Origin: Amyelois transitella
Taxonomy: Eukaryota > Arthropoda > Insecta > Lepidoptera > Pyralidae
DNA: 64,000 nt
Direction: 5' to 3'
Assembly (NCBI RefSeq): GCF_032362555.1
Contig: NC_083534.1
Coordinates: forward strand, 1,826,001 to 1,890,000
The first letter of the stretch is position 1. The number at the start of each line of letters is the position of its first letter. This document shows positions 17,425-60,580 of the stretch, piece after piece. The notes under the pieces were generated by a model, which saw nothing but the letters and a program-made list of their open reading frames with translations, had not been told where the DNA came from and ran no database searches. Made by a program: the position numbers and the translations under genes.

Positions 17425-17427
17425 TTA

Positions 17428-32203: not shown

Positions 32204-32310
32204 TAATAAGGTAATTTCACTGCATGACATAATCGCCTTTTACGTGTATACAAAATCCTTATTCACATCAATTTTATTTCATTCATTTCAGATTTAAGAT
32301 ATTTATCAAA

Positions 32311-35284: not shown

Positions 35285-36657
35285 AGTCAAAACATGCCAT
35301 TTTTTATTTACTGGATAATAAGTTCAGAATAGTTTTCCTTTGGCAGGATTTTTGTATAGATTTTTGTTCCCAGTACCGAAAATTTGATTTTGAAAATTAA
35401 GAACAACGCATTTATAAAAAGTTGGCTCTTATTTTAATTTTTTATAATAAAAATTGTATAATGTAATGCAGATTTTTTTATTTACAATTCTTACCACTAT
35501 TAAAATCTCATAGGTTTCTACTACCTACAAGTAAGTACATGCAAATAGGTGGTCCGAGAGGGGGCAAGTTTTATGAGTAAAATGTTGACAACATCTGGAT
35601 TTAGCACGAGGCAAATGCGTCTATAAAAAACTAGGCGCATTTCCCCCCGACCTTACCAAATCTTCTCTGAATGCATCAAGTATTCTCTTTGTCTTATTAA
35701 ATTATCACCTATAGCATAGAAAATTGGTTTGTAAAAAGCTACCTTGTTTTCATCCCGATAAACCTACTAATTCAGTATTTACTTAATAAAGACGCATTTG
35801 ACCCAAACGGGGTAAATGCGTAAGAAAAACCTCTTTCAAAAACACTCAATATGCCACCTTTTTAAAACTCTGGTGAAAAAAACATTGATATAAATTTATA
35901 CATAAGAAGTCATTTAATAGGCTTGATGTTCAAAAACAACGATAATGCCATGAATTCGCCTACATTATGGCGTTAACTTCAAGTGATCGGGAAATATGAC
36001 GCAATTACCCCGGTTGACCTTATATTGTTTCCGTATATGTGGCTCTAAGGATTGCAATAAACCTTCAAAAGTGGATACGCTCATTCGAAAAAAATTGTAA
36101 AACCTCTTTTCGTCTAAAACTAACTCTTGATATTCTTTAAAGAAAAAAAGTCCGTCACTATTCCTCAAGGCTATAAATGGACTGATCCAGTGTTTTCGTA
36201 TGATTCTACGTCGATTTCTTCGGTGGCGAAGTAATAAGAGCAGCAGCACACGTCTTTCCCGATCCATTGTTATTACAGACTGTCGTACGTAGCGATGGAC
36301 AACCCCTCATTATGCTACCGCTGCGGCGCCGCCGCGGCTCCGTAGATCGTTGCGACGCCGCTCTGCCCGTGTGGTCGCCAGCGCGGCGAAATGGCTTGCG
36401 GTGCGGCGCCGCGCCGCCCGTGTGGTTTGAGCCTAAGGCCTCGGTCTCGAATTTTGCGGGCAGCGGGGCGGCGGCGGCGGCGGCGCGGGAGCGGCAGGAT
36501 CTTGCGTATCGTCAAATGGACCGGGTCTCGAAAACAGAGGCGCGGGAGCGGCGCGGGGGCGGGCAACGAGCGGTGCACTCCAGTCGAGCGGTGACCGTCC
36601 CGTGTTGCGCGTCTGCATTGTAGTATAGTGTTGTACTTTTTTTTGTGACGTTTCAAA

Positions 36658-38515
36658 ATGTCCTCGGACGTGCAAGAGCAAATTATTTCGGCAATCTTTG
36701 AGAGGAGACCCATATGGAACAGCAAAGATGTGAACCATAAAAATAGAAGAATAATTAATCAATTATGGGAAGAAATAAAAAACGAACTGAATATTGAAGG
36801 TAGGTGAATATAAAAATTATTTATTATGTTATATACAATGTTTATTATGGTTTACAAATTAATTAGTAGCTAATGGGATTATTTACAAAATATTCTTTGA
36901 ATTTTTCACGTATATATTGTGCTTGATAAGACGTCCGGGCGTTGGTTTGTAATCGTGTTTGTAATGTTTGTTGATTCGTATTGACAGTAATATAGGCAAT
37001 GTCATTATCACCGTCCTTATCTCGGATAATGTTATGCAACAAACAGCAAGTTTTGATGAGTAATCTTGCATGACATTTGTTTGTCTCTATGGGCGATCTG
37101 AAAATATGCCACTTGGATCTTAAAATTCCGAAAGCACACTCAATAGTCTTTCGAGCCCGCGATAATCGCTTATTAAATAACTCACTTTGTGCATTAAGTA
37201 CGCTTTGTGGATAAGGTCGCATCAAATATGTTTTGAGTGGATATCCTTCATCTCCAATAAAAACCATTGGTAGAACGATATCTGATGTGGGTAGATATTG
37301 TGGACCTGGTATATTGTAGTTATTACTTTGAAGTAAACGGTTCAAATTAGAGTAATGGAATGTCCCTGCATCACTTTGTTTCCCTCTTCCTCCAACTTCT
37401 ATACAAACGAATCTTTTGTCAGCATCCGCGACCGCTTGCAAGTGCATCGAAAAGAAATGTTTATAATTATAATGCGATGATCCAGCGAACTTAGGATTTT
37501 TTATTCGACAGTGCTTGCCATCAATAGCACCAACGCAATTAGGAAATTGCCATTTTTCATAGTATTTTTCCGCTATATTTTTCAATAATTCTTCTGTCGG
37601 TTTTGGCATATGTAAATGTACCAAATTTTTCCATATAGCTTTACAAGTGCCATAAACTATGTTGGCTACCGTTGTTTTTCCCATTCTGAATGACAATGAC
37701 AGTCTTTTGAAAGGCTGCCCACTCGCCAAAAACCTGAAAATTAAAGCATGTATATGTTAAAGTTATGTATGTAATAAATAGTCTGTTCGTTCTTTGTTTC
37801 AGTGACCGATTTAAAGAAGAAATGGAAAAATTTAAAAGATCACTATAGAAAGGAATTAAAAAAAAATCCTGCCCCTAGATCAGGAGATGCCGGAAATGTT
37901 AATCAACCCTCAAATTGGCAATATTTTTCTCAATTGAGGTTTTTGCAAGATGAAGTTGTACCAAATGTTACTGAGGGTAATTTAAGCAGACCTGAAGTAA
38001 GTAATCAGATAAGTAATGATTCGTTTGAGACAGAAGACATATCTGGAGAAAACTCTCAAGAAGATACAACCGGTCATAATGAAGAATCTTCTATTTATCC
38101 ACAACAACCTTCTACATCCTCACAAGAGGCTCCTGTTTCTTCTCAAGAAGCTTCTACATCATTGCAAGAAATTTCTACGCCTCCAAGAGAAGCTTCTGCG
38201 TCACAACGATCAAGAAAAAAGAGAACAGCGAATGACATAAGAACTGAATTTTTAGAATTGGAAAGGAAAAGGATAAGACTGCTGGAAAATGATTTATCAA
38301 ATCAAAGTAGAAACGAGGCTTCTAGAAATGAGAATAAGTCTGATGACTACTACTTTTTTATGAGTTTACTTCCACAAATGGAAAAATTCACGCCCTTTCA
38401 AAAGTTTAGAGTAAGACAAAAAATTAATCAAGCTCTTCTAGATGAGTTAAGTGTAAATGAAAGCACGTACCCTTCTAATGAATCATATATGTATGGGTAT
38501 AGTACTCAACAATAG
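36658..38515 (+). CDS. Harb-B2 MADF-BESS protein (2 exons)
   Basis: Exon 1 36658-36799 is short (MSSDVQEQIISAIFERRPIW, LWEEIKNELNIE; donor GTAGGT). Exon 2 37803-38515 after TTTCAG continues DLKKKWKNLKDHYRKELKKN and YFSQLRFLQD. It has a Ser/Thr/Gln-rich linker (SSQEAPVSSQEASTS), a basic RSRKKRT patch, a long charged helix, the BESS motif (DDYYFFMSLLPQMEKFTPFQ) and ends YMYGYSTQQ. Presumed DNA-binding partner. The frame is open. Confidence 0.9.
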
Positions 38516-39294
38516 AGGTATATCAATCTTATAATGAAAATACTGTCAATAAATAACAAAACTGTGATTTAAATAGTTAACTAATCGTCGTACAGATGAG
38601 AACTTTAATTTTAGAGAGAAGATTTAGTTTTAAGATTAGCGTGGAATTATTATACTGACCACTAAGTATATCGACCTTGTAATAAAAATACTGTAAATGA
38701 GTGAGAAAACTGTGATTGTAGAAATAATTAATCGTAGTACAAACGAAAACTGTGATTTTAAAAATAAATGACAAACTGTTATGTTACTTATTTCATACGA
38801 AACGTTTTTATATTATATTTTTCGTCAAAGATAAATAATTAAGGCTGATTAGTGTGTAGTAGGTATTTAATTAAAATTATTGTATCTGGGAACTTAATAC
38901 CGATGCCAAACTATTTACTAAATTAGTAGGTACAACACTTCCTTTTTGAAACTATCAATAAATACAATTACAAATTACAATTTCGTTGTTTTACTTACCC
39001 AAGCGTTATGTATAATTTTTCTGCTGGAGATATACCTCTAAAACTTTTTGGATTAATTCCAGACTGTAAATCACTCTTGATAGTTTCTAGAATATAGTCA
39101 AAAGTTTCTACACTCATTCTGGTGTAGTCGTAGAATTTATCGGGATTTTGTCTCTGTTCTTCATAATTTCGATAAAACTCGCCATTTATTTTCCTTGCCT
39201 TATAGTAGGGATCCACTTCTTCTTTTGCCCACAATAAATCGAGCGTTAGGAATACATTTGAATCAAAAAGATGTTGTCGCCGATTTTCAGACAT
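36863..39294 (-). CDS. Harb-B2 HARBI1-like DDE transposase (2 exons)
   Basis: Exon 1 38999-39294 (MSENRRQHLF..., FYDYTRMSVETFDYIL, ending LYITLG; an upstream Met at 39330 is also in frame). Exon 2 36863-37733 begins FLASGQPFKRLSLSF and has GAIDGKHCRI, IGDEGYPL, FNKRLSRARKTIECAFGIL and a C-terminus FKEYFVNNPISY. It lacks the W-Q C-terminal signature seen in most other families here. Otherwise complete and open. Confidence 0.91.
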
Positions 39295-39456
39295 TTCGTT
39301 TGCGAATGTCGACAACACAACCACGAACACATCACTACACCGCTACAGTACCGCGCGATCTGCCCGCTGGTTTCGAGAACAGGTATGCGTTGCCCGCCCC
39401 TCTCCCGCGCCGCCGCCGCCGCCACCCCGCTGCCCGCAAAATTCGAGACCGAGGCC

Positions 39457-39511
39457 TAAGACTACGAATCCGACTGACCAAACTTTATTACGGTGCTGAC
39501 TGAGACTGAAT
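39457..39511. other. Non-element flank X, copy 2
   Basis: Repeats 8560-8614 (TAAGACTACGAATCCGACTG... to ...ACTGAATT) between Harb-B2 and Harb-G2. In copy 1 the same TTA is uninterrupted (followed by TGATTAAG), so X is the old target in which C/B2 and G2 inserted. Confidence 0.65.
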
Positions 39512-41018
39512 TTAGGGCCCTTTCAATTTATGCGTTTCTTGTCGGCCCGCTGCGGTGCCGAAGCGGTACGTTAGTCGTACAACGTACGGACGATCCTTTT
39601 TTTCATACAAATCGCGCGGTGCGGCAACAGTGCGGCGCCAGTACCGAGAACGCTCGACAACAGGACGGCAACGTCGCAAGCATCACGTGTTCATTCTAGT
39701 GTTGAATAGTGCGGTGAATAGACGTCAGAGCTCTTTATATCAAATGTTTATTTGCATTTTTGCTAAAAATGGATAATATAAACGTGGAAGATTTTATAAA
39801 TGAGATTGAAATACGTCCTGCTATCTGGAACTCCAAAAGTGACAAACACAGCAATCGCACTGAAACAAAAAATGCTTGGGAAGGCATCTGTGAGAAATTT
39901 GTGGAAGATTTTAAAAATAAAACTACTGGTGAAAAGAACTCTGCAGGTAATTATTTATTCAGTCAAATTTTGTAATTTTGCCATGATAATTGTCCTTCGT
40001 TAACAAAGTATTCTGCAAATTTATCGCGAATTGATGTTGCTGACAAATTATGTTCATTTTGATCCTCCTGATCTATTTGATTGGCTTGAATTAAGAGATT
40101 ACTATTAGTAATTTCTTCACAATCACGTTGTAAGAAATTATGTAAAACACAGATGGCTTGAACAATATCCGTCGCTAACGATATTTCTACATTTATTGGT
40201 CGATGTAATATTCGCCACTTATTAGTCATCATTCCGAACGTACACTCTATGTATCTTCGAGCACGTGACAAGCGGTAATTAAAAACTTTTTGTTGGTGAT
40301 TCAAAAAATTTCCACTATAGGGGCGTTGTATAAAATTACTGATACCGAATGCTTCATCACCGATAAAAACAAACGGTAGTGGTGAACCATTTTCTGTTAT
40401 TGCCATAGGACTTGGTATATGTAGACTGTTTTCTTGCAATTTCTCGAAGAAATCACTGTTTCTAAATATTTGTGAATCAGAAGACTTTCCATATGAACCG
40501 ACATCAATGAAAATGAATTTGTAATTTGAATCACAAATGGCCAACAATACAATAGAAAAAAAGTTTTTATAATTGTAATAAAGCGAACCGCTTTTAGGGG
40601 GCTTAATTATTCTTATATGTTTCCCATCTATGGCGCCCAAACAATTAGGGAAATTTGCCTTGGTTGCAAAACCGTGTGCAATTCTTAACCAATCCTCCTT
40701 TTTCAGTTCGGGTAAACAAATTTCTCGTAGGGTTTTGTAAATCTGTTGACACGTATCTTTAAGGGTGCGTCCACATCTGGCGAATGTGCCGCGAATGTGC
40801 AGCTCGCGAGCCGTTTGCGAGCTGCGCGCGTACAATTTTGTTCGAGCGCCGCTCCTGCGCCGCCCGCGCGCAGTTCACGCGCAACCTAAGCGCCGTACGC
40901 GATCAGCGCGCGGGCGGCGCGCTAGCGGCTCGCGTCTTCCTTCCACCCGCGTCTCAATCCCCGCACCCCTTACCCGCTCAGTTCGTTTCTGATTATTGGA
41001 GGTTAAGTACGTGTTGTC

Positions 41019-42733
41019 ATGGAGTGGACGGAGGAGAACTGTTTACGCTTAATTGAAACATATAAAAGATTTCCAGTTTTGTGGGATCCTAAAGATCAAT
41101 ATTACTATAGAAAAAATGTAAAAAATGATGCGTGGAAAGAAATTGGTGCTATAATGGGAAGCGATTATGAACAATGCCGTAGCAAACTGTTAAGTCTTTT
41201 ATCTTCTTTTAGAAGAGAGAAAGGAAAAAGTCAAAAAAGTAAAGGGACAGGGAAAGGCGAGTAAAAAACTATTTGTTACTTTTTATGTTTTATTTTATTA
41301 GTTAAATTGACTATGTAACTAATATTATTCTATATTTTTAGGTGCATCCGAGACTTACAAAAGTAGATGGTTTGCCTATGACGCTTTTTCCTTTTTAGCT
41401 GATCGGGATAAACCAAGGAAACGTATAAATACTGTAAGTAATTAAATCAACAATATTTATCTTGAAATGCAATACGGCCTTCATTTACGCAATAAGAAGC
41501 AATCTCATCTCTTATTTCGTTTATTTCTCTTGAATATCTTATTTGTGATGTTTGAATATTTGAAAGAGATGTCAAATTAGGTACGGATTGATTTATATAC
41601 ATATTGGAATTAGTTGTATAACTATCGGTGGCGTTCTGTTTCAAATAATTATGCAAGTGAATAATACTCATAACGACTACTTCAGCAACTTCTGGTTTTA
41701 ATATCATAGGTTTTCTAAGTACCCTAAAAATGGATGATGCAATGCCAAAGGCACTCTCAACAATTCTGCGAGCTCTGCTTAATCTATAGTTAAAAATGCG
41801 TTCCGGAGTGCCTTTACTGTGGTTACCGGAGTATGGTTTCATCACATGTTTATCTAGAGCAAAAGCGCTGTCAGCAACAAAGAAGTAGGGTATCGCTTTA
41901 GTCCTGTAAGGTAATGCTTTTTCTTGTGGTAAATTTAAGGAGCCATTTTGCATCATCTTGTAGAACTCTGTATCTTTGAATATCCCTCCATCAGATATAC
42001 GCCCCTGGCAACCAACATCAGCAAACATAAATTTATAATCTGAGTCTACCAGTGCAAACAGAACAATACTAAAAGTAGATTTGTAATTATGATATTCAGT
42101 TCCACTTTTCGGAGGTGCCTGTATGACTATATGTTTACCGTCTATTGCGCCAATGCAATGGGGCAAATGCCATTTATCTTCGAATCCTTTACTCACTTCT
42201 AGCCATATTTCTGGTCTCCTTGGCACCTGAAAAATAATAATATAAATATAAAAACATTATTACAGGAACAGGCAGATATAGAACAAGATAAAGTGGATGA
42301 GCGACAGGTACAAGATGATGGAATAAATACTGACACTGAAAGCGACCTGTCTTTTATTGAACCTCCGCCGTCCAAAAAGAAAAAATCGACGGATGATAAA
42401 ATCGTAACTGAAGCCCTACAATGTTTAAAGACTGCTACAGAAAAATTGAGCGATAATTCCAAATTGTCACAAGAAGTACATTCATTTATAAATTTTATTG
42501 GAGCCAAAATGGAATCTTATTCACGTTCAACAAAAAATATGGTTCAACAGGCAATATTTGATGTCATAATGAAAGCTGATTCTGGGTACTATGATTATCA
42601 ACCAAATATGCAAGTGTCAACGCAAGGTTATACAACTTATTCTCAAAGTGCTTCTACGTCCAGACCGCACAGTCAGGAAAGTAATTATTCGGCAGAAGAT
42701 ACGAATGACAGCTACAGTGATTTGTTTCAATAA
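41019..42733 (+). CDS. Harb-L2 MADF-BESS protein (3 exons)
   Basis: Exons 41019-41256, 41342-41433 and 42266-42733, with the same GC-type donor after exon 1 as in L1. Exon 2 begins GTGCATCC against GTACATCC in L1, a Thr to Ala change. The BESS-like segment, QGYTTYS and SYSDLFQ end are all present. Intact. Confidence 0.88.
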
Positions 42734-43245
42734 TAACTACTTTCTTTTTGTAAACTTATATGTTGCTTATAAAAAAGGCTATGTGATTATTTAATAAAGA
42801 TAATTAGAAAAATACTCACACGTACGTTTTCCTTTAAACACTTGATAATCGCCAAACACACTTCAGGAATAATAATACTTATACTTTGCTTAGAAATTCT
42901 AAAAAGGTACTGCAAGCTTGTGTAGGAATCTCCAGTGGCCAAGAATCGTAATGTCAAACTTAATTTATTTTCAACTGAAATTGGTAGCCTAAAATGCGTT
43001 TCCTTTTTAGCAATCTTGAAACTAAGCATGTGTAGTAGATTTTCATATAATTCTGGTGACAATTTTAAAAAATTTGCATAGTGGCCGCTTAATTGATGGC
43101 TTTTTAACTCCGCTACTATATTCTGTTTTCTTTTAAAAATAGGATTTTGCCACCAACGCCGTTGTCTCTTTTTTTTCCTTTTTATCAGTAATATAATAGC
43201 TAATGATGCAGCAATTATATTAAAAGCACTAGTGTCGTCCGACAT
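41447..43245 (-). CDS. Harb-L2 HARBI1-like DDE transposase (2 exons)
   Basis: Exon 1 42820-43245 (from MSDDTSAFN) and exon 2 41447-42226, same as L1: GAIDGKHIVI, VADSAFAL, VESAFGI. Complete and open, with both element ends present, so L2 looks autonomous. Confidence 0.93.
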
Positions 43246-44135
43246 CTTCGAAAGTACTGAGCCAGTAAATGGAACTGTAAGCGCGAGGATTGAGTACGCG
43301 CAGATCGCGCGCCGCGCGCACGCCTTATACGAGCCTTGTATGAGTTGCGCTAAGGCGGCGCAACGAACCATTGCAGTGACTGCATGCGTGCAGCGCGAGT
43401 GCAGTTCGCGTACCGTTCGTGAGTTGCACATTCGCGGCACATTCGCCAGATGTGGACGCACCCTTACAATTCCAGAAATAGTTGAAATTCCATGTTGATA
43501 AGAATGATGCAATTCAGTCATACTGCAACCAGCGGCTAAGTATCTGTAACAATAATATTTATTTTTATTTTAGCAATGGTACTTCAAAAAAAATGGAGGC
43601 ACATAAGGGATTCATTCTCAAGAGAGTTGAAAAAACAACGAGAGTCAAAAAGTGGATCTGCAGCAAAAAGACATCGACAATATGTTTATTTTGATCGACT
43701 GCAATTTTTGTCGGAACTATATGAAACAAAACCAGATGAAAAAAATAAACAGACTGGCGATGGTGCTACTGCGTCGACACCGAAAACTACAACTAAAAGT
43801 TCATCTGCTAACGACACAAATGAAACTAACACGCTTTTAAAAATACTCGCAGAAAGATTACAAAACAAAAAAGATGCAAGGGTGCGTCCACATCTGGCGA
43901 ATGTGCCGCGAATGTGCAGCTCGCGAGCCGTTTGCGAGCTGCGCGCGTACAATTTTGTTCGAGCGCCGCTCCTGCGCCGCCCGCGCGCAGTTCACGCGCA
44001 ACCTAAGCGCCGTACGCGATCAGCGCGCGGGCGGCGCGCTAGCGGCTCGCGTCTTCCTTCCACCCGCGTCTCAATCCCCGCACCCCTTACCCGCTCAGTT
44101 CGTTTCTGATTATTGGAGGTTAAGTACGTGTTGTC

Positions 44136-45850
44136 ATGGAGTGGACGGAGGAGAACTGTTTACGCTTAATTGAAACATATAAAAGATTTCCAGTTTTGTG
44201 GGATCCTAAAGATCAATATTACTATAGAAAAAATGTAAAAAATGATGCGTGGAAAGAAATTGGTGCTATAATGGGAAGCGATTATGAACAATGCCGTAGC
44301 AAACTGTTAAGTCTTTTATCTTCTTTTAGAAGAGAGAAAGGAAAAAGTCAAAAAAGTAAAGGGACAGGGAAAGGCGAGTAAAAAACTATTTGTTACTTTT
44401 TATGTTTTATTTTATTAGTTAAATTGACTATGTAACTAATATTATTCTATATTTTTAGGTGCATCCGAGACTTACAAAAGTAGATGGTTTGCCTATGACG
44501 CTTTTTCCTTTTTAGCTGATCGGGATAAACCAAGGAAACGTATAAATACTGTAAGTAATTAAATCAACAATATTTATCTTGAAATGCAATACGGCCTTCA
44601 TTTACGCAATAAGAAGCAATCTCATCTCTTATTTCGTTTATTTCTCTTGAATATCTTATTTGTGATGTTTGAATATTTGAAAGAGATGTCAAATTAGGTA
44701 CGGATTGATTTATATACATATTGGAATTAGTTGTATAACTATCGGTGGCGTTCTGTTTCAAATAATTATGCAAGTGAATAATACTCATAACGACTACTTC
44801 AGCAACTTCTGGTTTTAATATCATAGGTTTTCTAAGTACCCTAAAAATGGATGATGCAATGCCAAAGGCACTCTCAACAATTCTGCGAGCTCTGCTTAAT
44901 CTATAGTTAAAAATGCGTTCCGGAGTGCCTTTACTGTGGTTACCGGAGTATGGTTTCATCACATGTTTATCTAGAGCAAAAGCGCTGTCAGCAACAAAGA
45001 AGTAGGGTATCGCTTTAGTCCTGTAAGGTAATGCTTTTTCTTGTGGTAAATTTAAGGAGCCATTTTGCATCATCTTGTAGAACTCTGTATCTTTGAATAT
45101 CCCTCCATCAGATATACGCCCCTGGCAACCAACATCAGCAAACATAAATTTATAATCTGAGTCTACCAGTGCAAACAGAACAATACTAAAAGTAGATTTG
45201 TAATTATGATATTCAGTTCCACTTTTCGGAGGTGCCTGTATGACTATATGTTTACCGTCTATTGCGCCAATGCAATGGGGCAAATGCCATTTATCTTCGA
45301 ATCCTTTACTCACTTCTAGCCATATTTCTGGTCTCCTTGGCACCTGAAAAATAATAATATAAATATAAAAACATTATTACAGGAACAGGCAGATATAGAA
45401 CAAGATAAAGTGGATGAGCGACAGGTACAAGATGATGGAATAAATACTGACACTGAAAGCGACCTGTCTTTTATTAAACCTCCGCCGTCCAAAAAGAAAA
45501 AATCGACGGATGATAAAATCGTAACTGAAGCCCTACAATGTTTAAAGACTGCTACAGAAAAATTGAGCGATAATTCCAAATTGTCACAAGAAGTACATTC
45601 ATTTATAAATTTTATTGGAGCCAAAATGGAATCTTATTCACGTTCAACAAAAAATATGGTTCAACAGGCAATATTTGATGTCATAATGAAAGCTGATTCT
45701 GGGTACTATGATTATCAACCAAATATGCAAGTGTCAACGCAAGGTTATACAACTTATTCTCAAAGTGCTTCTACGTCCAGACCGCACAGTCAGGAAAGTA
45801 ATTATTCGGCAGAAGATACGAATGACAGCTACAGTGATTTGTTTCAATAA
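44136..45850 (+). CDS. Harb-L3 MADF-BESS protein (3 exons)
   Basis: Exons 44136-44373, 44459-44550 and 45383-45850. Same as L2 with one noticed substitution in exon 3 (SFIKPPP for SFIEPPP). Intact. Confidence 0.88.
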
Positions 45851-46362
45851 TAACTACTTTCTTTTTGTAAACTTATATGTTGCTTATAAAAAAGGCTATG
45901 TGATTATTTAATAAAGATAATTAGAAAAATACTCACACGTACGTTTTCCTTTAAACACTTGATAATCGCCAAACACACTTCAGGAATAATAATACTTATA
46001 CTTTGCTTAGAAATTCTAAAAAGGTACTGCAAGCTTGTGTAGGAATCTCCAGTGGCCAAGAATCGTAATGTCAAACTTAATTTATTTTCAACTGAAATTG
46101 GTAGCCTAAAATGCGTTTCCTTTTTAGCAATCTTGAAACTAAGCATGTGTAGTAGATTTTCATATAATTCTGGTGACAATTTTAAAAAATTTGCATAGTG
46201 GCCGCTTAATTGATGGCTTTTTAACTCCGCTACTATATTCTGTTTTCTTTTAAAAATAGGATTTTGCCACCAACGCCGTTGTCTCTTTTTTTTCCTTTTT
46301 ATCAGTAATATAATAGCTAATGATGCAGCAATTATATTAAAAGCACTAGTGTCGTCCGACAT
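44564..46362 (-). CDS. Harb-L3 HARBI1-like DDE transposase (2 exons)
   Basis: Exon 1 45937-46362 and exon 2 44564-45343, indistinguishable from L2 as far as I can read, with GAIDGKHIVI, VADSAFAL and VESAFGI. Apparently autonomous. Confidence 0.93.
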
Positions 46363-47671: not shown

Positions 47672-47675
47672 GGGT

Positions 47676-48019
47676 TGTAGGGGTGTACACACTCAGGCAT
47701 TTGCGCCAAATCAGCATTCCTGTAGCCGATAGCTAAGTAGAGCCAGTCGTCCCGTGTCGGCCTACCGACCAACACAACACACATAACCTGTACTTCTATA
47801 CTCTGTGTAATTTGTGTTATGTGAACTTTATCTTTCGTTTTCTCTATGTACTGTATGTGCTAATTATAATTTCGGTACCAATATAAGCGAAGCTTTCGTG
47901 AACTGCATTGAGTTGTTTTACTGGAACACTAAATCCTTCTAAACATTACCTGGGAAGTGATTACCTTAGAGACAGTGAAGTTAATCATTCGATATAGACA
48001 TAATAGTAACAGACTAACA
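47676..48019 (+). repeat. Gypsy 5' LTR
   Basis: 344 bp from TGTAGGGGTGTACACACTCA to ...GTAACAGACTAACA. Same as the 3' LTR by eye. Confidence 0.93.
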
Positions 48020-48158
48020 GTGGTGACACCCGTGTGCAGTAAAGTGACTTTCAGTGCAAGTAACGTTTGGCGGGGCGACTCAATTTCAAGCGTCGGTAGG
48101 TTGACTCACACTCGGTACCCTTCAGTTCACTCTCTGCGGACAGTGAAAAGTAACGAAG

Positions 48159-48938: not shown

Positions 48939-51900
48939 CAACCGTACAGTCGGCGACGGGAAGCTGTATCGGGGGAACAAACCGTCGGTTGTGTATCACG
49001 GATAAAAATAGTAAGCTAAGTTTTTTAATAGATACAGGTGCCAATGTGTCAGTATTGCCCCCCACGGCTAATAAACGCAGTTTCATGCACGATTCAAACG
49101 ATTATGTTTTATTTGCAGCCAACGGGACTCAAATAAAAACCTATGGTACTCGCACATTGACCCTAGATCTTAACATAAGGCGCGAATTACGTTGGACGTT
49201 TATTATAGCTGACGTTAAACAACCAATTATAGGAGCAGACTTTTTAAGCCACTATAAACTGATAGTTGATTTAAATAATAGGCGTTTAATCGACACGCTA
49301 ACAACTCTTAATGTTATTGCCAGTGTTCAAAGTTGTATTAACGCATCTGTCACGACTTTATCCGAAAATCATCCGTATCACGATTTACTTAAACTTTTTC
49401 CAGACATAACGAAACCCATGTCTTTTAAAGAACCTCCACAGCATTCAGAGAAGCACTACATCGAGACAACCGGACCACCGGTTCACGCTAGAGCAAGACC
49501 GTTACCGCCAGATCGTTTGCAGAAGGTAAAAGAAGAATTTAAGTTAATGGTAGAATTAGGTATTTGCAGGCCATCCAAGAGCGCGTGGGCAAGCCCACTG
49601 CATATCGTCCCGAAAAAGAATGGAGACATCCGGCCATGTGGTGACTATCGGCAGCTAAACGCCATCACCAAACCGGACAGATATCCCATTCCGCGCCTGC
49701 ACGATTTCACCTACGTCCTGGCAGGTAAAACAATTTTTTCACGTATCGACGTAAATCGATCTTATCATTTTATACCCATTAATGACGACGACATCGAGAA
49801 AACAGCAATAATTACCCCATTCGGACTTTTCGAATTTACGAGAATGACCTTCGGACTACGAAATGCAGCGCAATCCTTCCAAAGGTTCATGCATCATACA
49901 GTCTTACAAGGGTTGGATTTTGTATTCAGTTTTATCGATGACGTCATCATAGCAAGTACAAGTGAGGCAGAACATAGGGAACATCTTCGACTATTATTTG
50001 AGCGTTTAAACAAGTTTGGATTAACAATTAATCAGTCTAAATGTTGTTTTGGAGTATCGGAACTAGAGTTTGTTGGTTTTCACGTTTCGGCACAAGGAAT
50101 TCGACCTCTACAAGACAAGGTACAAGCCATATCAGATTTTCCTAAACCTACTAAGGTTAACCAATTACGACGTTTTTTAGGCATGATAAATTTCTATAGA
50201 AAACATATTCCACATGCGGTTCAAAGTCAAGCTATTTTATCTCAATATTTACATAACGCTAAAAAGAACGACAAATCTCCCATCAACTGGACGCCGGATG
50301 CTGACGCAGCGTTTCAAGAATGTAAGTTACAGTTACAGAATGCGGTCACGTTGTCACACCCGAGCAGCGACGCTACGCTAGCACTGTTTACAGATGCATC
50401 GGACACATGTACCGGAGGGGTTCTACAGCAACTGGACAAAGGTGCGTGGAGACCCCTGGGCTATTTTTCTAAACGTCTATCAGATACTCAAAAGCGTTAC
50501 AGCACTTACGATAGAGAATTGTTAGCGATTTATTTCGCCATCAAACATTTTCGTAAGTTGTTCGAGGGAAGGCCGTTAACGATCTATACCGATCATCGTC
50601 CATTGGTACACGTTTTTTCGAAAATAGGTACAGAGTCAGAAACACCTCGTCGAACAAGGCAGCTTTTGTTCATAAGCGAATTCACAACGGACATACGACA
50701 CGTAGCAGGCAGCGATAACGTGGTCGCCGACGCGTTATCGCGCGTCGCGACTATTTCCTGTCCCACAAGCATCGATTACGAGCAACTAGCTGAGTCGCAG
50801 AAATCTGACAACTACCTAGCGCAGCATGAAGCAGGAAACGTAAGTAGTAATAATGTTGTAATCAAACGTATACTTTTACCCACAGTTAAAAAAGAGGTGT
50901 ATTGCGACATTTCAACTTCAAAAATAAGACCATATTTGACGGAGGCGTTCAGACGTTTAGCATTCGATAGCATACATGAACTTAGTCATCCTAGTATACG
51001 CACCACGCGTAAAATGCTATCGGACAGATTTTTCTGGCCTAACATGAACATTGACGTAGGCAGATGGGCAAAAAATTGTGTCAGTTGCCAAAAAGCGAAA
51101 ATCACCAGACATACGATTTCAGAGTATGGCACATTTCAGCATGCACAACGCTTTGAACATATTCATGTAGACATAGTAGGGCCATTACCTACATCACCAG
51201 ACGGATACAGGTACTGTGTAACCATCATAGACCGAGGTACACGGTGGCCTGAGGCTATACCAATCAAGGATATAACAGCAGAGACGGTCGCCAGAGTCAT
51301 CTACGACAACTGGATAACCAGGTATGGATGCCCGGTCCGACTTACGACGGACCAGGGTCGACAGTTTGAAAGTCAACTATTTGCAGATTTGCTTAAAGTT
51401 TTAGGCATTAACAGGATAAGAACAACCAGCTACCACGCGCAGGCTAACGGCCTTGTCGAGCGTTGGCATCGCAGTTTAAAAGCGTCACTGATGTCTCGTT
51501 TAACCAATCAATCTTGGGTTGACGAGCTTTCGACAGTGCTGTATGGTTTACGCGCAGTAGGGCGCAGCGAAAACGGCATAAGCGCAGCTGAGTATACTTT
51601 TGGAAAAACACTAAGGCTTCCAAATGATTTTTTTAGCTCGTCGGAAACTATACTTGACGACTCGTATACGTATATAGAAAATATTCGTCAGTCAATTGAT
51701 AAATTACGGCCAATTTCAAACACTCATCGGGATAATCGCAAATGGTTTGTGCATCCGGATCTTAAGTCATGCACACATGTTTTTGTTAGAGATGATACGG
51801 TGAGAAAGCCTTTGAAAGCTCCATACGATGGGCCATTTAAGGTAATTAGGAGGAACGAAAAAACATTCGAAATTCAACTACCAAATCGCCGTTCAGTAAT

Positions 51901-52081
51901 TTCGATAGATAGATTGAAACCGGCATACTTAATTAATAGCTCAGACGTGCAAACACAGGCGCCAAGTATAGTTATCGACACGGGTAAGCAGATGTCGCAA
52001 CCTAGCATCGCGACTGACCCGGCAACGCAGCGAGTTTCACGCAGCGGCCGTGTCATCAAAAAACCCGTACGTTTTACTTAG
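48920..52081 (+). CDS. pol: Gypsy pol (protease, reverse transcriptase, RNase H, integrase)
   Basis: About 1050 residues. Protease [12 protein letters not shown], reverse transcriptase [11 protein letters not shown] core, RNase [15 protein letters not shown] and YTDHRPLVH, an integrase zinc region (HELSHPS ... CVSCQKAK), integrase core VDIVGPL and [10 protein letters not shown], then a [11 protein letters not shown] module of GPY/F type. It copies the RNA to DNA and integrates it. The whole length is open. Confidence 0.92.
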
Positions 52082-52228
52082 AAATAGTAAGTATTTTAGG
52101 GCAGATATTTTTTTTTCCTTCCGCAAAGATACTTTCTTCGGTCACAGTCATAACGCATCTTTGATCAGTTTCACTACTGCAATAAATATCTAATAGTCAA
52201 TTTTTTTATTCAAAGACATTCATTCAAC

Positions 52229-52519
52229 ATGGGTCAATATTCAACTAAGTTAGAGGAAGTAAATTATACGCAAAACAACATAAATCAAGTCAACGATATG
52301 AAGTCAAAAATGGATAGTTTTAACGTCATTTTGATCTGCATAAGTGTCGGTACAGTTTTATGTATGGTTTGCTGCATTTATTTTTGTTTCGCGAGATGCA
52401 CTAAAAGTACGAAGAACTGGTTGAATAAACGATTGACAGTATCTTTGGAGGAAGCCATTGAACAGCGATCATCACCAGCGCAGGCAGAGAAAGGTAAACA
52501 CAGAGTGATTATCGCGTAA
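52229..52519 (+). CDS. Gypsy third ORF, small membrane-type protein (96 aa)
   Basis: 96 residues with a single hydrophobic segment (VILICISVGTVLCMVCCIYF) about residues 33-52 after a polar Asn/Gln-rich start, and a basic tail. The length and lack of a surface domain argue against a full envelope protein. I do not recognise a family. It lies between pol and the 3' LTR, where extra frames are known in this superfamily. Confidence 0.6.
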   Translation: MGQYSTKLEEVNYTQNNINQVNDMKSKMDSFNVILICISVGTVLCMVCCIYFCFARCTKSTKNWLNKRLTVSLEEAIEQRSSPAQAEKGKHRVIIA

Positions 52520-52831
52520 AGCTACCTACACCTGTGTCTGGAAATCGTTCAAGTTTATGTAATTTTAAGACATTTTTTTTATGTATCGTTTTTTTTTTTG
52601 TAGTCGCGATAAGTCCTTAAAACCCTGGCATTCTAAATTATAAATAACTTGTGATCATTGTAAAATTGTAGTCATAACATATTGTTGATATCCTATCGCT
52701 TTGTATAATTTAATTCGTAGTTCAGCGCAAATATAGAAATAACAGATGTGGAGACTTGTACACAACATTTTTTTTTTTAACTATTGTAAAATTTGTCGAT
52801 TTTTGTGTAACAAATTTTAGGAGGGGTGTGA

Positions 52832-53175
52832 TGTAGGGGTGTACACACTCAGGCATTTGCGCCAAATCAGCATTCCTGTAGCCGATAGCTAAGTAGAGCC
52901 AGTCGTCCCGTGTCGGCCTACCGACCAACACAACACACATAACCTGTACTTCTATACTCTGTGTAATTTGTGTTATGTGAACTTTATCTTTCGTTTTCTC
53001 TATGTACTGTATGTGCTAATTATAATTTCGGTACCAATATAAGCGAAGCTTTCGTGAACTGCATTGAGTTGTTTTACTGGAACACTAAATCCTTCTAAAC
53101 ATTACCTGGGAAGTGATTACCTTAGAGACAGTGAAGTTAATCATTCGATATAGACATAATAGTAACAGACTAACA
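52832..53175 (+). repeat. Gypsy 3' LTR
   Basis: 344 bp, matching the 5' LTR. Preceded by a purine-rich GGAGGGGTG tract just upstream (about 52820-52829). 52520-52831 is AT-rich untranslated sequence. Confidence 0.93.
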
Positions 53176-53685
53176 GGGTGAAGCCAGACGGGCGTAATTT
53201 TATGAGTTGTGAGTCGCGTATTTTCGGTCGCGTAATTTCTGCTGCATTCGGTTTCATACAAAAGTGCAGTTTGCGCCACACGACGACGCAAAATGAGTTG
53301 TCTGTCGACTCACGCGCATAAACTCGACCGAATTTCTGTCGGGGTGAGGGAGGGGAGAGCGGTCAGCGGGGCAGCGGGTGAGGGAGGGGAGAGCGGTCAG
53401 CGGGGCAGCGCAGCGACAGTTCGTTACGGGATGCGTAGGTAGGAGTTTCTCGCTGTTCTGAAAAATGTTCGACACGGAAAAATTGATTTTTGAAGTGGAA
53501 CAACGGCCATGTTTATGGAATTTGTCAGAAAAGTCATACAGTGACAAGTTTTTGAAACAGAAAGCATGGCAAGAGGTCGCTGAGAATTGTTTTGAAGAAT
53601 GGAACAACTTGAGCAACGAAGACAAAGAAAAGAAAAGTGAGTATTTTTACCATATTTTTATTAACATTAAAATGTTATTGATATA

Positions 53686-53760
53686 CAGGCTGCTTTAAAA
53701 ATCACTGAAATGGTGAGACACGTACAAAATATTTTTATTAACATTAAAATATTATTAATA
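53686..53760. repeat. Solo arm of the fold-back MITE that follows
   Basis: ATACAGGCTGCTTTAAAAAT followed by TGGTGAGACACGTAC repeats the left arm of the element at 53761-54000, then TTTTTATTAACATTAAAATAT duplicates host intron sequence 53660-53676. It looks like a remnant of a duplication at insertion, or a solo arm. Confidence 0.6.
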
Positions 53761-54000
53761 TACAGGGTGTTATAAAAATCATTGAAATGGTGAGACACGT
53801 ACACAATAGTTTCATACACAGAACTCGATGGCATGGTCAATTTACCTCCCCATACAAAATGTCCCAGTGCTAATCGCATTTTGTATGGAGAGTCAAATTT
53901 TTTTTCGTGATTTGGTAAATTCTGACTATGCCATCGAGTTCTTTGTATGAAACTATTGTTTACGTGTCTCACCTTTTCAGTGATTTTTGTAACACCTGTA
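53761..54000. repeat. Fold-back MITE, about 240 bp, in the Harb-N intron
   Basis: Ends TACAGGGTGTTATAAAAATC and, on the other strand, TACAGGTGTTACAAAAATCA; arms of about 110 bp include GGTGAGACACGTA and ACTCGATGGCAT. No gene. TACAGGGTGTT-ended MITEs are common in insects; I did not assign a family. Confidence 0.75.
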
Positions 54001-54074
54001 TTATATCTATACCGGCTGTATCTATATGCTGTATCCTATATTAAAATTACCAATAAGTAATTTATTGTAAAAGA

Positions 54075-56201
54075 TCAGAATACAGAATTGATTCGATTTT
54101 GCCAGGGTAACGCTCCTACTTCACAAACAAAGTAATTTTTAAAAAAATCTCTGGTGACTATAGCAGAACTCGACGACCTTCTTCCATTTGAAATTTGTTG
54201 AATACATTGTAAAGGACATTTCAAAAACTCATCGTCAAACTTAGCCCCAACTCTCCTTCGCACGAAATTGTGCAAAACGCATGTAGCTTTAACTATATCA
54301 ATGGCAAAGTCAGGGTTGACTTGCATTGAAGAGTGAAGTACCCTCCATTTATTTGTTAATATGCCAAAAGCACATTCTACACATCGTCGCGCTCTACTAA
54401 GACGATAATTAAAAATACGTTTGTTTCTATCTAGGTTTCTGTTAGGATATGGGCGCATCATATTTCTGTGTAAACCAAACGCCTCATCTCCAACAAAAAC
54501 AAAAGGTTGGGGTTCGTTTGTGTAATTGGGCAAATTTTTGTCTTCCGGTAAATTTAAATCATTTCTGAAAAACTTTTGACCTAATGTAGACTTTCTGAAT
54601 ATAGAGTTATCGGATTCTTTTCCATAATCACCAACATTAATCGTTGTAAAACAACAGTTTGCATCTGCCACAGCCATTAACACGATGGAGAAGTATTTCT
54701 TATAATTATAATAATTCGAACCACTGTGTGAAGGTGATTTTATTCTGACGTGTTTACCATCTATTGCCCCAACGCAATTTGGAAAATTAGTTTTCTTATA
54801 AAAAAGCTCGGAGTTCGAATTCCAAATAGATTCATTCGGTTCTGGCATTTCATTAGGCTGAAGTACATTCCATATTTGTATACAGGTATGTTTGACGATA
54901 TCATACGCAGTAGAACGCCCAATCAAGAAGTCTTCACTTATTGTATTTAAATCAATACCTTTGGCAAGATACCTGAAACAAAATGTAAAAATAATTAATT
55001 GAACACAATTGAAAACACTAAAGTTATATTTTATTACATAAATCAATAACATAATCATCCTATTAAAATTAATCTTTTGCTTTTCAGTACATTTTCTGCA
55101 AAAAAAATGGAAAACCGTAAGAGATTATTACACGCGTGAAAAAAAAAAAGAAAATGAAGAAAGAAGTGGTAGCGCAGCAAAGAAGAAGAAACCATGCCCG
55201 TATTTTGATTTATTGCAGTTTTTAAAAGTTACCAAACAGTCAAGGAACTCATTTTCAAATGTAACTTCTCCTGAAAACACTGATAATGATAACGATGACA
55301 GTAATATAACTGGCAACAACGACGATGAAGATCCTGATGAACAATCCAGATCCACAGAAGCAGACTCACCACTGTATCAACCGTCTACCAGCCAGCCAGC
55401 GTCAATGCAAAAACCTGTATACGAAAACCAGCCATCGACGTCAAAGCAGACAGTGCCATCGCAACCCGAGACATCTGTATCCCGAACAAAAAATAAAAAA
55501 CAAACACTGACACTGTTTCAAGAATCTCTTCTCAAAAAGTTTGATAATGATGATGATAAGGATCCTAATTGATTATTTTTATTGTCTTTTTGCCGGAGAT
55601 GTCCAAAATGACAGAAAAACAGAATTTCGAATTTCGCATGGAACTTATGAAAGCATTAAATAAAGTCAAGTACCAAATTCCAGAACAGCACACACAATCA
55701 AATTGGCCTCATTTTTCATCACCCTTTTCCGATTCCCACAGCAGTAATCAATACTACCCGACACCAGTAAATAGAGGATACACAACACAGGCAAATGAAT
55801 ATCACTCTAATGAAATAAATGAATATGATGAAACATAGAATACTGTGCAGCTTGTTCATTAATCTTTATATTTAAGTAAAATAATAATTAAAATACTTTA
55901 AAACTTACTTGAGTGTTATTATTAATCTTTCCTCTGGGCTGATGGCTAGTCTCATATTTGTGTCCGATTTAGTAATAAAAGGTTTTACGTGATGTAATAA
56001 TTCTTGAAAAACATGTAATGGCATATGGTAGTAGTTTTTAAACATATCTGGATTTGCACATACACGTTCATATAATGTATGGAACTGTCCACATATCAGC
56101 CTCTCACTATTGAGTGGGTTTACCCAGCTTCTTTTTCTGGCATCATCTTCAGTATCTTCTGAATATGCTTCGTAAATACACAATATTTTCAATGGATCCA
56201 T
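54075..56201 (-). CDS. Harb-N HARBI1-like DDE transposase (2 exons)
   Basis: Exon 1 55909-56201 (MDPLKILCIYEAYSEDTEDD, KRSWVNPLNS, FKNYYHMPLHVFQELL, ending LIITLK at GTAAGT). Exon 2 54075-54972 begins YLAKGIDLNTISEDF after TTTCAG; GAIDGKHVRI, VGDEAFGL, FNYRLSRARRCVECAFGIL, C-terminal LPWQNRINSVF. All catalytic acids present and both exons open. The MADF partner of this copy is frameshifted. Confidence 0.9.
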
Positions 56202-56389
56202 CGCACTTGATGACACAAACACCCCGTATCAACACTCGATAGCGACTGAATAAATTACGTCCATCTGGCAGCTCAACCGAAATTCGGTTGGGCGTAATTT
56301 ACGCGGCCGAAATTCTGCGACTCACAACTTATAAAATTACGCCCGTCTGGCTTCACCCTTACTCCGCCGCCGTCGCCGACAACATCGAA

Positions 56390-57105
56390 GAGCGCATACA
56401 GACGAACGGCATGGTGTCGACGGCAGGGTACCACCGCAGCCGTCGACGTGTCGGCGGCAGCAGTCAATACGTCGACGGCTGCCGCCGATAGGCGGCAACA
56501 GCTGCCGTTGACAGGCGACGTTTGCAGTATTAGAATGCCGCGTACTAGTAGTCGTGGTATAGGAGCCAGTTGCAAAATGGATTCCGAGGAAGAAACACTG
56601 TTATTGCTTTTACTCCGCCGCCGTCGCCGACAACAACGAAAAAGAAAGATACGTTCAGTGTGGGTTAAAGAAATATTAATGTATAGAGAACAAGAGGGAG
56701 ATTTTTATACACTCTATCCACGTTTACGAGAGAACGAAAAAAAATTTTTCAATTACTTTCGTATGTCAATCGCTTCTTTTGATGAGTTAACAACTATCTT
56801 GAAAGCCTCAATATCTCGCCAAGACACCGTGATGCGGAAAAGTATACCAGCTGAGCAAAGACTCGCCATGACATTAAGGTAGCTCATTTTGTGGATGCGT
56901 GACGCTTGCGCACTCTCCGTCTATTTGCAGTCGACTGACAAAATGGCGGACGAAACACGCAAGAACCGCAAACATCGCCACCTGTCGGCGGCAGCCGTCG
57001 ACGTATTGACTGCTGCCGCCGACGCGTCGTCGGCTGCCGTCGACAGATGGCGACGGCTGAAGTAGACTCTGACGTTTACAACTTGCAGTTCGTCTGTATG
57101 AACCC
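56390..57105. mobile_element. Harb-M copy 2: internally deleted PIF/Harbinger
   Basis: 716 bp, from GAGCGCATACAGACGAACGG to the right terminus that reads GGGTTCATACAGACGAACTG on the other strand, then TTA (57106-57108) shared with Harb-F2. It keeps only transposase exon 1 between GC-rich ends of GTCGACGGCTGCCGCC-like repeats. The first 223 bp match M1. Confidence 0.85.
56577..56878 (+). pseudogene. Harb-M2 transposase exon 1 (solitary)
   Basis: MDSEEETLLLLLLRRRRRQQ start with Leu run and Arg run, then SVWVKEILMY, FFNYFRMSIASFDELTTIL and LAMTLR before AG|GTAGCT. A typical exon 1 of this superfamily, but no catalytic exon and no MADF gene follow before the right end, so M2 is non-autonomous. 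Confidence 0.87.
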
Positions 57106-57353
57106 TTAGAGCTAGTTCAGACACGGCGGATTCCGCGCGGTTTCAAACAGCGCGGTTGAACCGCGCGGATCCTAATTACATTAGCGCCTTACAAATCGTT
57201 CATACCTGTCCGCACGGATTGACAATCCGCGCGGCTCCCGCCACTCAACCGCTAGAAAATGAATTCGCGCGGTCGCCGCTCGGTTTTATTTACTTGACGT
57301 ACCTAGAGGGCGTTCAGTTGCTCCGCGGAAGCCGCGCGTATCGGACGGTGACA

Positions 57354-59470
57354 ATGGATCGCTTCGACACCGAGCTATTCATCGATGAGGTGGAAAAAAG
57401 ACCTGCTTTGTGGAACATCCAATGTGCAGAATATTCTAACAAAACGATTAAAAACGGAGCTTGGCAGGAGCTGGTGGAGATTTTTGGAGAAAATGAGGAT
57501 TCTTTGGAAAAGAAGGTTCTTTTTGGTCAGTAGACATTTAATTATACATTTTACCAGGGTAGTTTACATGTTTTGTAATAGACAGTCCACCCCAAATAAC
57601 TGAAATGTGTATAACGTTGTTTGGCGGTACGTAACGAGCGCGGGAAAACTATCACGTTGCCACAGTAACGTATAGCTATTAACTGTAATATGTACAACCC
57701 ACCAACGCGACGCGCCATCTTGAGTTTAGTTATTTGGCGCGAACTGTAACAATTTTAATTTCATATTTTCGTGTCTTGCCATTCTACACGACCCTCATTC
57801 ACAAAGTAATTAGCATATTTGTCTCTAATGTTTAATGATGATGGTGTACCCCTTCCTGCATGTAATGTAATAAGATTACTCATTGGCGCAGTATGTAAAG
57901 TATCTTCATACTGTATACCATCTCTAGTTCTAACAAAATTGTGTAGCACGCAACAGGCCTTTATTATGTCTTCGGCAAAGTCTATATTCACGTTTATAGG
58001 CCTATGAAAAATGCGCCACTTGTTTGCCAGAATTCCAAAAGTGCATTCAATAAAACGTCGAGCTCTTGATAACCTGTAATTAAATATTTTTTTTTCGTAT
58101 GATAGCCCTTTACCTGCATAGGGTAGCATTACATTTTCGGATAAACCAAACGCTTCATCGCCAACTATGACGTATGGCAATGGTTTAGGATCTGTTTCAG
58201 ATATTGGTTTAGGTTTTGGTATGTGTAATGACTTTTCTATTAACCTTTTATAAAATGCTGAATTTTTAAAAATTGCAGAATCACTACTTTTTCCGTAAGA
58301 TCCGATATCTATGAAAGTAAAACAATAGTTACTATCACAAAGTGCCAACAGTACTATGGAAAAAAAAGTTTTGTAATTATAATACAAAGAACCCGAATCT
58401 TTGGGTTTTGTAATCCTTATATGCTTGCCATCTATGGCGCCTATGCAATTGGGAAAATTTGCATATTTTTCAAAATCTTTAGCTATTTTCTTCCATATAT
58501 CTTCGCTGGATTCAGGCATGACGTTTTTTGTGACTTTTTCCCACAGAGCTTCACATACTTCACGGACAATTCCTGTGATTGTAGATTTGCCAAGACGAAA
58601 GTTGTAATGTAGTTCTCCAAAGGAACAACCAGTACCCAGATATCTGAAAAATAAAATATTAATCTGTATCGTTTTGAAAGTCTGCCGGGTCCGCTAGTTA
58701 AAGCATAATGAGTGTCTTGAATTACCTAACCGCTACTGTATTTATATTTGTTAAAGATAGTGATTTCTGTTCCAGGTGTATTATTACAAAAAAAATGGAA
58801 GAACATCCGTGATGCTTATAATAAGGAATTCAAGAAAGGCAAATCAATTCCTTCTGGTTCTGGTGCATGTAAAGGTTCAAAATACATGTATTTCGACCGG
58901 CTTTCTTTTCTTCAGAAGACGATAGAAAACAAAGAAACTATCACAAACATAGATGAAGCCAAAAATGAAGAAATTCGGAACATTGACCAAAAGCTAGATA
59001 ATTTTGTAAATGCACGTGAAATACAACCGGTACCCAATAAAAGGAAGAAAACTAAAATTACTTCAGAAGAGCGATTGGCTGACATATTAGAAAATAGTAT
59101 TGAATCAAGAGATAAAATACAAAGACAGATACAAGAAAGTATGTCAAAGCAAGATGATGATGATAAACTTTTTTGCATGTCATTGTATAAAGAGTTAAAG
59201 AAAGTTCCAGAAAATAAACGATTGGCTACTAAAATTGAATTGCTCCAGGTAATACAGAAAGGGCAGAAATTACCATCGCCTATTCATATCACGAGCCAGC
59301 AAAACACGCCTAATGCAGTATTTTGGCAAAACCAACAATATTCAAACCCACAAGGATATTTCACTGGATATTCTACAATAGTACCAGGAGAGTCTCCATC
59401 GCCTTTATCATGCAATAGCACTGACGATTCACAGTCTTCTATAGTACAAAATATATATTCTGACGTATAA
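57354..59470 (+). CDS. Harb-F2 MADF-BESS DNA-binding partner (2 exons)
   Basis: Exon 1 57354-57525 (MDRFDTELFIDEVEKRPALW, AWQELVEIFG; donor G|GTCAGT), exon 2 58776-59470 after TTCCAG (VLLQKKWKNIRDAYNKEFKK, YFDRLSFLQK). Then comes a long charged helix, a basic NKRKKTK patch, BESS motif (DKLFCMSLYKELKKVPENKR), QGYFTGYST and end NIYSDV. An in-frame upstream ATG exists but the MADF start is the natural one. The transposase catalytic exon lies in the intron. Confidence 0.93.
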
Positions 59471-59774
59471 AATAAATATCTTACCTTAATGTGATCACGA
59501 GTTTTTCTTCTGGGGACACGCTTGACCTCATATGGGTATCATTAGATTCAATTTGTTTACTTATCATTTCTAATAATTCATCAAATGAATTTATCGACAT
59601 TCTCAAATAATTGAAGAATTTTGGTTCAAAACTTCTTAATTTTGGATATAAAGTCTGAAACTGACCATGAGTAAACCGATCGCGTAATATTGGATGCACC
59701 CAATACTGCCGTTTCTTCTTTCTTTCTTTTTTACGGAGCAACAAGTACACACATATTGCTTCTTCGACTTCCAT
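57761..59774 (-). CDS. Harb-F2 HARBI1-like DDE transposase (2 exons)
   Basis: Exon 1 59485-59774 (MEVEEAICVYLLLRKKERKK, QYWVHPILRD, FFNYLRMSINSFDELL, LVITLR). Exon 2 57761-58643 begins YLGTGCSFGELHYNF after TTTCAG and has GAIDGKHIRI, VGDEAFGL, FNYRLSRARRFIECTFGIL and C-terminal VEWQDTKI. The catalytic acids are all present and both frames open. With intact ends this copy looks autonomous. Confidence 0.94.
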
Positions 59775-59900
59775 GATTGGACTGTCACCCTATGCGAATA
59801 ACGGCACTCCGCATGTACATCCGCGCCTGTCTGAACACTTGCGTTTAGAACCGCGCGATTTGCATCTGCGCGGAATCCGCCATGTCTGAACTAGCTCTTA

Positions 59901-60577: not shown

Positions 60578-60580
60578 TAA

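What the first reader, a model, noticed from the sequence alone, without database searches (positions are those of the whole stretch)
36434..59900. Elements laid end to end sharing one TTA/TAA
Several junctions have two different elements separated by only one 3-bp target copy: B1|TTA|I (1836), C|TAA|B2 (36434), G2|TTA|M1 (47446), M2|TTA|F2 (57106), F2|TTA|O (59898). The junctions read like CCC-TTA-GRG. PIF of maize prefers CWCTTAGWG, so the end of one element (..CCC) plus its duplicated TTA may itself form the favoured target. This would build self-growing trains of Harbingers, in which different families use each other's ends as landing sites.
Basis: partly seen in the sequence, partly recalled or inferred. 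Interest (0 to 1): 0.75.

Follow-up and report, generated by a model that had tools for sequence, protein, structure and literature searches.

The report
Harbinger transposons joined end to end
In a butterfly genome, young jumping genes of the Harbinger type sit end to end with a single three-letter tag between them more often than their mild landing preference predicts, and one case suggests that two neighbours were spliced together through that tag.

Summary
The five junctions are real, at the stated coordinates; the letters CCC-TTA-GRG hold exactly in only 2 of 5. About 22 young Harbinger insertions can be read in the window; 5 sit at a neighbour's target copy against 0.19-1.15 expected under the weightings tried (P 1e-6 to 0.005). 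End searches of eight families in the whole genome found two more junctions: F|TTA|F on C24 and E|TTA|C on C27. E|TTA|C points elsewhere: both elements lie in one copy of element M whose 603 bp between the two target triplets are gone exactly from triplet to triplet, as if facing ends were cut and joined through a 3-nt overhang. Six of 53 end pairs have target copies that differ at the middle base only, and two insertions at TCA sites carry TAA or TTA: ends may sometimes keep their old triplet. C|B2 instead fits ordinary sequential landing. My reading: trains grow by transposase action on neighbouring ends, part joining, part landing. The C27 case is one locus; its key control search did not complete.

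The parts
653..1835 (.). B1, right part of a B element (left part not seen; element J ends at 652 inside it)
   Evidence: 1 substitution in 1183 bp against B2; J end ..CGCGCCC-TAA at 653
1836..1838 (.). shared TTA, junction B1|I
   Evidence: native site GAC-TTA-GGA read from a copy of the host repeat at window -3281
1839..4696 (.). I element, right target copy TTA at 4697
5047..8550 (.). G1 with its two TTA copies (single, not in a train)
28523..28525 (.). TAA at the left end of C
28526..36433 (.). C element, carrying a pogo/Tigger-like ORF (DDE_1, HTH_psq)
36434..36436 (.). shared TAA, junction C|B2
36437..39456 (.). B2 element, complete
   Evidence: 20/20 terminal match, TAA both sides; DDE_Tnp_4 and MADF
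39457..39459 (.). TAA right of B2; flank equals window 8564 onward (native CCT-TAA-GAC)
39512..39514 (.). TTA left of the four-element train; native site AAT-TTA-TGA from 8616
39515..47445 (.). D2 element with A2 and A3 nested
40760..43466 (.). A2 with unlike target copies: TAA left, TTA right; empty site in D1 is TTA
47446..47448 (.). shared TTA, junction D2|M
47449..57105 (.). M element, holding Q (with an LTR element in it) and a second M 5' end at about 56390
57106..57108 (.). shared TTA, junction M|F2
57109..59897 (.). F2 element, complete (2789 bp)
59898..59900 (.). shared TTA, junction F2|O
59901..60579 (.). O element, left part in view
12526..15601 (.). E1 with unlike target copies: TTA left, TAA right; empty site in F2 is TAA

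Best explanation
The trains come from transposase action on the ends of Harbingers already crowded into a nest, not from sequence preference alone. Inferred: the transposase cuts in a 3-nt stagger at TWA, so element ends carry a TWA overhang. When facing ends of two neighbours are cut and joined, the spacer is lost and one TWA remains; other members arrive by ordinary insertion at a neighbour's target copy, helped by a weak lean to C-TTA-G. The same overhang would explain target copies whose middle base differs left and right. Shown here: the junctions and their excess; one junction (C27 E|TTA|C) where 603 bp of the host element are missing exactly between the two target triplets; recurrent pairs of target copies that differ at the middle base. 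Not shown: the chemistry, and how each window junction formed.
For: C27:2976900-2983226: M[1-74]-TTA-E-TTA-C-TGA-M[684-716]; M 78-680 (603 bp) missing. The native triplets are TCA at the E site in 12 of 12 and TGA at the C site in 13 of 13 M copies read that cover them; this M's own outer copies are TAA/TAA. F|TTA|F dimer on C24: two full 2789-bp copies head to tail, 4 substitutions apart, with about five F copies seen in 327 Mb. 8 of 53 end pairs are discordant, 6 of them at the middle base only (48 pairs, 40 concordant; 5 more B pairs, concordant, read), although copies differ by 1-2 substitutions in 716 bp (M) or 0-4 per stretch of up to 3070 bp; at an assumed 0.0015 per base mutation gives about 0.16. 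G in an M copy on C27 has TAA/TAA where 12 of 12 other M copies read have TCA. The 5' TSD-overhang model for mPing excision (PMC4561436, passages read) supplies the chemistry.
Against: One locus only for spacer loss, and its control (does a short M with 74 joined to 684 through TNA exist?) was asked and never answered; no M end pair that short is, whose counts are lower bounds. M has inverted arms near both ends that could favour deletions, though not exactly at both target triplets. The C|B2 flanks match one native site (CCT-TAA-GAC; only 3 bp on the left), which fits sequential landing. Concordant non-canonical copies (TTC, TAC, GTA twice, TTT, CAA) look like ordinary copying of the target. 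One of the six middle-base pairs (D on C1:6.118M) is a diverged copy. In yeast, 45 of 46 insertions of an mPing with TCA copies lay in TTA/TAA (PMC4561436), so carry-over, if real, is not the rule there.
Confidence: 0.45

Rival explanations
1. Plain sequential landing: a resident element's end plus its TWA copy is an attractive target, through sequence (lean to C-TTA-G) and perhaps through transposase bound to that end.
For: C|B2 flanks fit a single native site; C at -1 and G at +1 about 2-fold enriched over 43 sites; the same TWA is kept through each window train.
Against: Sequence weights give 0.25-1.15 junctions for 22 insertions against 5 seen; a simple simulation needs about a 20-50-fold boost; the lean is uneven between site subsets; landing does not by itself remove 603 bp of M at C27.
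Confidence: 0.37
2. Recombination or assembly error among near-identical copies put unrelated ends together.
For: The nest is reshuffled: right parts of F1, D1, A1 and E3 are not seen and O bases 52-679 recur 11 kb on; copies are about 99.9% identical.
Against: Homologous exchange joins like to like inside elements; it does not readily make exact end-TWA-end junctions between different families, and the same form recurs on C24 and C27. Reads were not available.
Confidence: 0.1
3. Chance in a very dense nest.
For: 22 insertions in 64 kb; few intact pairs of Harbinger-like ends in the 100 kb on each side.
Against: Expected 0.19-1.15 junctions under the weightings tried, five seen; two more outside.
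Confidence: 0.05

Closest known systems
PIF/Harbinger of maize and rice (PIF, Ping/Pong, mPing)
   Same: DDE_Tnp_4 transposase plus Myb-like partner, 3-bp TTA/TAA copies, extended insertion preference (PMC2836001, passages), TSD-derived 5' overhang proposed for excision (PMC4561436, passages).
   Different: Preference here is about 2-fold per side; the maize 9-mer CWCTTAGWG comes from the finding and my recall (none of the 20 papers listed holds it). End-to-end joining and middle-base discordance of natural copies were not in the passages read.
MITE multimers (Jiang and Wessler 2001, not held; quoted in PMC10664404 as 11% of rice MITEs)
   Same: Clusters of such elements inserted next to or into one another.
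   Different: Here full-length young coding elements of different families; spacer loss at C27. I could not read the 2001 paper, which may already describe shared copies.
Pithovirus M1/M2 repeats (PMC10664404, passages)
   Same: Neighbouring repeats share one target dinucleotide.
   Different: TA, palindromic repeats, no transposase found by those authors, (M1-M2)n patterns.
Guayule/rice SaTar arrays (PMC5907723, passages) and coral CMITE tandem arrays (PMC2872659, passages)
   Same: End-to-end arrays of DNA elements.
   Different: MULE and piggyBac types; microsatellite targeting or slippage proposed.
Reversed-ends transposition of maize Ac (PMC3744419, search listing and start of abstract only)
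   Same: As recalled: facing ends of two neighbouring elements used together, with deletions.
   Different: hAT type, 8-bp copies (recalled).

Membership tests
PIF/Harbinger | DDE_Tnp_4-type transposase | tested here: met
   10 of 10 transposase ORFs scanned (7, 3); M, O and J not scanned
PIF/Harbinger | second protein with Myb/SANT (MADF) domain | tested here: met
   MADF or BESS hit in 7 of 8 partner ORFs, two of the hits below the curated cut-off; none in A's ORF 42203-42733
PIF/Harbinger | 3-bp TTA/TAA target copies and terminal inverted repeats | tested here: met
   45 of 53 pairs concordant, 39 of these TTA or TAA; TTC, TAC, GTA, TTT and CAA also occur
PIF/Harbinger | extended palindromic target (9-15 bp) | tested here: inconclusive
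   weak and uneven lean to C-TTA-G over 43 sites; no CWCTTAGWG in the window
Reversed-ends / alternative transposition | use of facing ends of two elements with loss of the DNA between | tested here: inconclusive
   one locus, C27 E|TTA|C; control search unanswered
piggyBac-like joining through element overhangs | element carries its target overhang into the new site | tested here: inconclusive
   middle-base discordant pairs and TCA sites bearing TWA; contrary cases with apparently copied non-canonical targets

The most novel reading that the evidence does not exclude
Harbinger elements keep a 3-nt TWA overhang of their old site and use it as a cohesive end: it can be ligated into the new site (leaving unlike left and right copies, or turning a TCA target into TAA...TAA), and it can join the facing ends of two different elements, deleting the spacer and building trains.
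Probability: 0.3. Interest if true: 0.75.

Novelty: new variant of a known kind. Interest (0 to 1): 0.5.

Why it matters
How PIF/Harbinger ends are joined is known mainly from mPing excision (my recall of the field, with PMC4561436). Young, nearly identical insect copies with readable empty sites give a natural test of whether the target copy is made by fill-in or partly brought along. If facing ends can be joined, dense nests would shrink and fuse into compound elements, a route to new composite transposons and to precise small deletions.

Tried and rejected
Extended maize-like motif: not in the window; only 4 of 43 clean sites are C-TTA-G. A Y-TTA-Y motif suggested by 13 window sites did not survive: elsewhere G at +1 is 12 of 27. 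X|TAA|G on C7: X proved to be the inside of a common repeat, so this is a natural GAC-TTA-GGG site, not a junction. M at C8 with flank ..ATAACCC-TAA: no element end recognised among the sequences held. The de novo scan for TIR pairs with TWA is largely chance (97-102 hits in each of 3 first-order resamples); only long G+C-rich pairs were used. Right flank of the D2-M-F2-O train: not usable, because the O copies flank a 10-kb element and seem exchanged. Family ends of A, O, H, J and Q were not searched genome-wide (A and O were asked and not answered). The first try at the expectation script failed and was rerun. Paper searches on nested, multimeric or shared-TSD elements and on alternative transposition showed, in the rows listed, no Harbinger account of end joining; the library lacks most subscription papers.

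The counts rest on tables typed by hand; background frequencies are those of the window; sites in one nest are not independent; P values are nominal. Rows dropped: single ends, diverged 3-mismatch hits, the C25 C ends, and, from the site logo, discordant or non-TWA pairs and the G insertion at a TCA site.
Full report
Setting. The window is C30:1826001-1890000 of a 327-Mb, 33-contig assembly. The closest listed protein to the F transposase is from Bicyclus anynana (98% identity), so a satyrine butterfly is likely. The window is a nest of Harbinger elements: 22 insertions can be read (J, B1, I, G1, F1, H, E1, D1, A1, E3, G2, E2, C, B2, D2, A2, A3, M, Q, a second M end, F2, O), while few intact pairs of such ends lie in the 100 kb on either side, and the searched ends of known families lie in the window or within 3 kb of it apart from weak matches. 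Copies of one family within the window differ by 0-4 substitutions per stretch compared (up to 3070 bp), so the nest is young. Ten of 10 transposase ORFs scanned carry DDE_Tnp_4 and 7 of 8 partner ORFs give MADF or BESS hits, two below the cut-off.

Observation. All five junctions are as reported, with one TTA or TAA between two element ends. The letters CCC-TTA-GRG fit exactly in two of five. Three loci are involved: B1|I, C|B2 and the train D2|M|F2|O. Their native sites can be read from other copies of the same host repeat, which by eye looks like a BEL/Pao element (not searched): GAC-TTA-GGA (copy at window -3281), CCT-TAA-GAC (8561) and AAT-TTA-TGA (8616).

Chance. Twenty-eight TWA target copies stand against 3287 other TWA sites. 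If all TWA were equal, 0.19 of 22 insertions would land in an existing copy; five did (P 1e-6). With -1/+1 weights from 13 window sites the expectation is 0.25, from 43 sites 0.43 (P 6e-5), and 0.84 (P 0.0012) if every target copy is given the C-TTA-G weight; an over-fitted +-3 model gives 1.15 (P 0.005). A simple simulation needs about a 20-50-fold boost of target copies to reach five.

Target preference. In 13 window sites, C at -1 is 5/13 and G at +1 is 0/13. End searches in the whole genome for F, G, M, D, C, E, I and B raise this to 43 clean sites: C at -1 12/43 (p 0.011), G at +1 14/43 (p 0.0014), both together 4/43 against 0.8 expected, A at -1 3/43. The subsets disagree: 27 sites elsewhere have C 5/27 (p 0.40) and G 12/27 (p 1e-4); 16 sites in or near the window have C 7/16 (p 0.003) and G 2/16. 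A symmetric motif should show both in both sets, so I call this a lean, not a motif. Background frequencies are those of the window.

More junctions. F has about five copies in the assembly, yet two of them form F|TTA|F on C24:3445531-3451117, head to tail, full length, 4 substitutions apart, with outer flanks GAT-TTA and TTA-AAC. C27:2976900-2983226 holds E|TTA|C. In the 39 other end pairs outside the window whose 14-bp flanks I read by eye (34, 5) I saw no end of another searched family; ends of unsearched families could be missed, and the tool calls its counts of repeats lower bounds.

The C27 case. E and C lie in one M copy with outer TAA copies on both sides. Left of E is M 1-74 and TTA; between E and C is TTA; right of C is TGA and M 684-716. 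M copies have TCA at 75-77 in 12 of 12 and TGA at 681-683 in 13 of 13 copies read that cover them. Thus E stands where TCA was and C where TGA was, and the 603 bp between those triplets are gone exactly. The simplest account is two separate insertions followed by cuts at E's right and C's left target copies and joining through one TWA. The alternative is an M deletion derivative whose breakpoint happens to be the landing site, perhaps helped by M's inverted arms; no such short M end pair is, but a direct search did not complete.

Unlike target copies. Of 53 pairs (48, 5), 45 are concordant and 8 discordant; six differ at the middle base only (M on C7 and C13, D on C1 with TAA/TCA in a diverged copy, E on C20, E1 and A2 in the window), and two otherwise (G on C7, M on C16). 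For E1 and A2 the empty sites are known (TAA and TTA): the left copy is the odd one in both. On C27, G at a site that is TCA in 12 of 12 other M copies has TAA/TAA, and E at a TCA site has TTA. M copies differ from the window's M by 1-2 substitutions in 716 bp, with 0-42 gapped bases; at an assumed 0.0015 per base, mutation predicts about 0.16 middle-base changes. Against a general rule, six concordant non-canonical pairs (TTC, TAC, GTA twice, TTT, CAA) look like ordinary copying.

Mechanism. Gilbert and colleagues (PMC4561436, passages read) propose that mPing excision leaves 3-nt 5' overhangs derived from the target copy, and report that unlike copies (TTA/TAA) are repaired less well. By inference the excised element then carries the complementary triplet. 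I take this as the most likely common cause of joined ends, spacer loss and unlike copies, at 0.45, with sequential landing as the main rival (0.37); both may operate, since C|B2 fits landing at one native site.

Known context. End-to-end or clustered small elements are known (passages read: PMC10664404, PMC5907723, PMC2872659; PMC10664404 quotes 11% of rice MITEs in multimers from Jiang and Wessler 2001, which is not held). I therefore rate this a new variant of a known kind, not a new kind.

Noticed in passing
15880-27665: F1, D1, A1 and E3 each lack their right parts; one deletion by exchange between two G copies (left end in E3, right end in another flank) would explain all four.
   Followed up: partly
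47669-56361: Q is inserted in M, and an LTR element (gypsy-type by eye) sits four bases inside Q's left end with GGGT on both sides.
   Followed up: partly
16885-17858, 27805-28519, 60885-61397: A foldback element (P) with long inverted arms and an apparent 8-bp TTTGAATC duplication in D1; several copies in the nest.
   Followed up: no
59952-60579 and C30:1896682-1897309: Bases 52-679 of O recur, identical, on both sides of a roughly 10-kb element, probably exchange between two copies of that element.
   Followed up: partly
C27:2949494-2991238 (L027, L028, L039): A second Harbinger nest holding G, B, M in M, E|C, Q and F.
   Followed up: partly
C20:7311023, C21:759529, C27:3150582, C20:1903879, C23:4819035, window 43877: Concordant non-canonical target copies TTC, TAC, GTA, GTA, TTT and CAA.
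   Followed up: no
C7:11065141-11068672 (L023, L024): G at a natural GAC-TTA-GGG site in a common repeat, with only T left of the right target copy.
   Followed up: partly
32233-34515: Pogo/Tigger-like ORF (DDE_1, HTH_psq) inside the C element.
   Followed up: no
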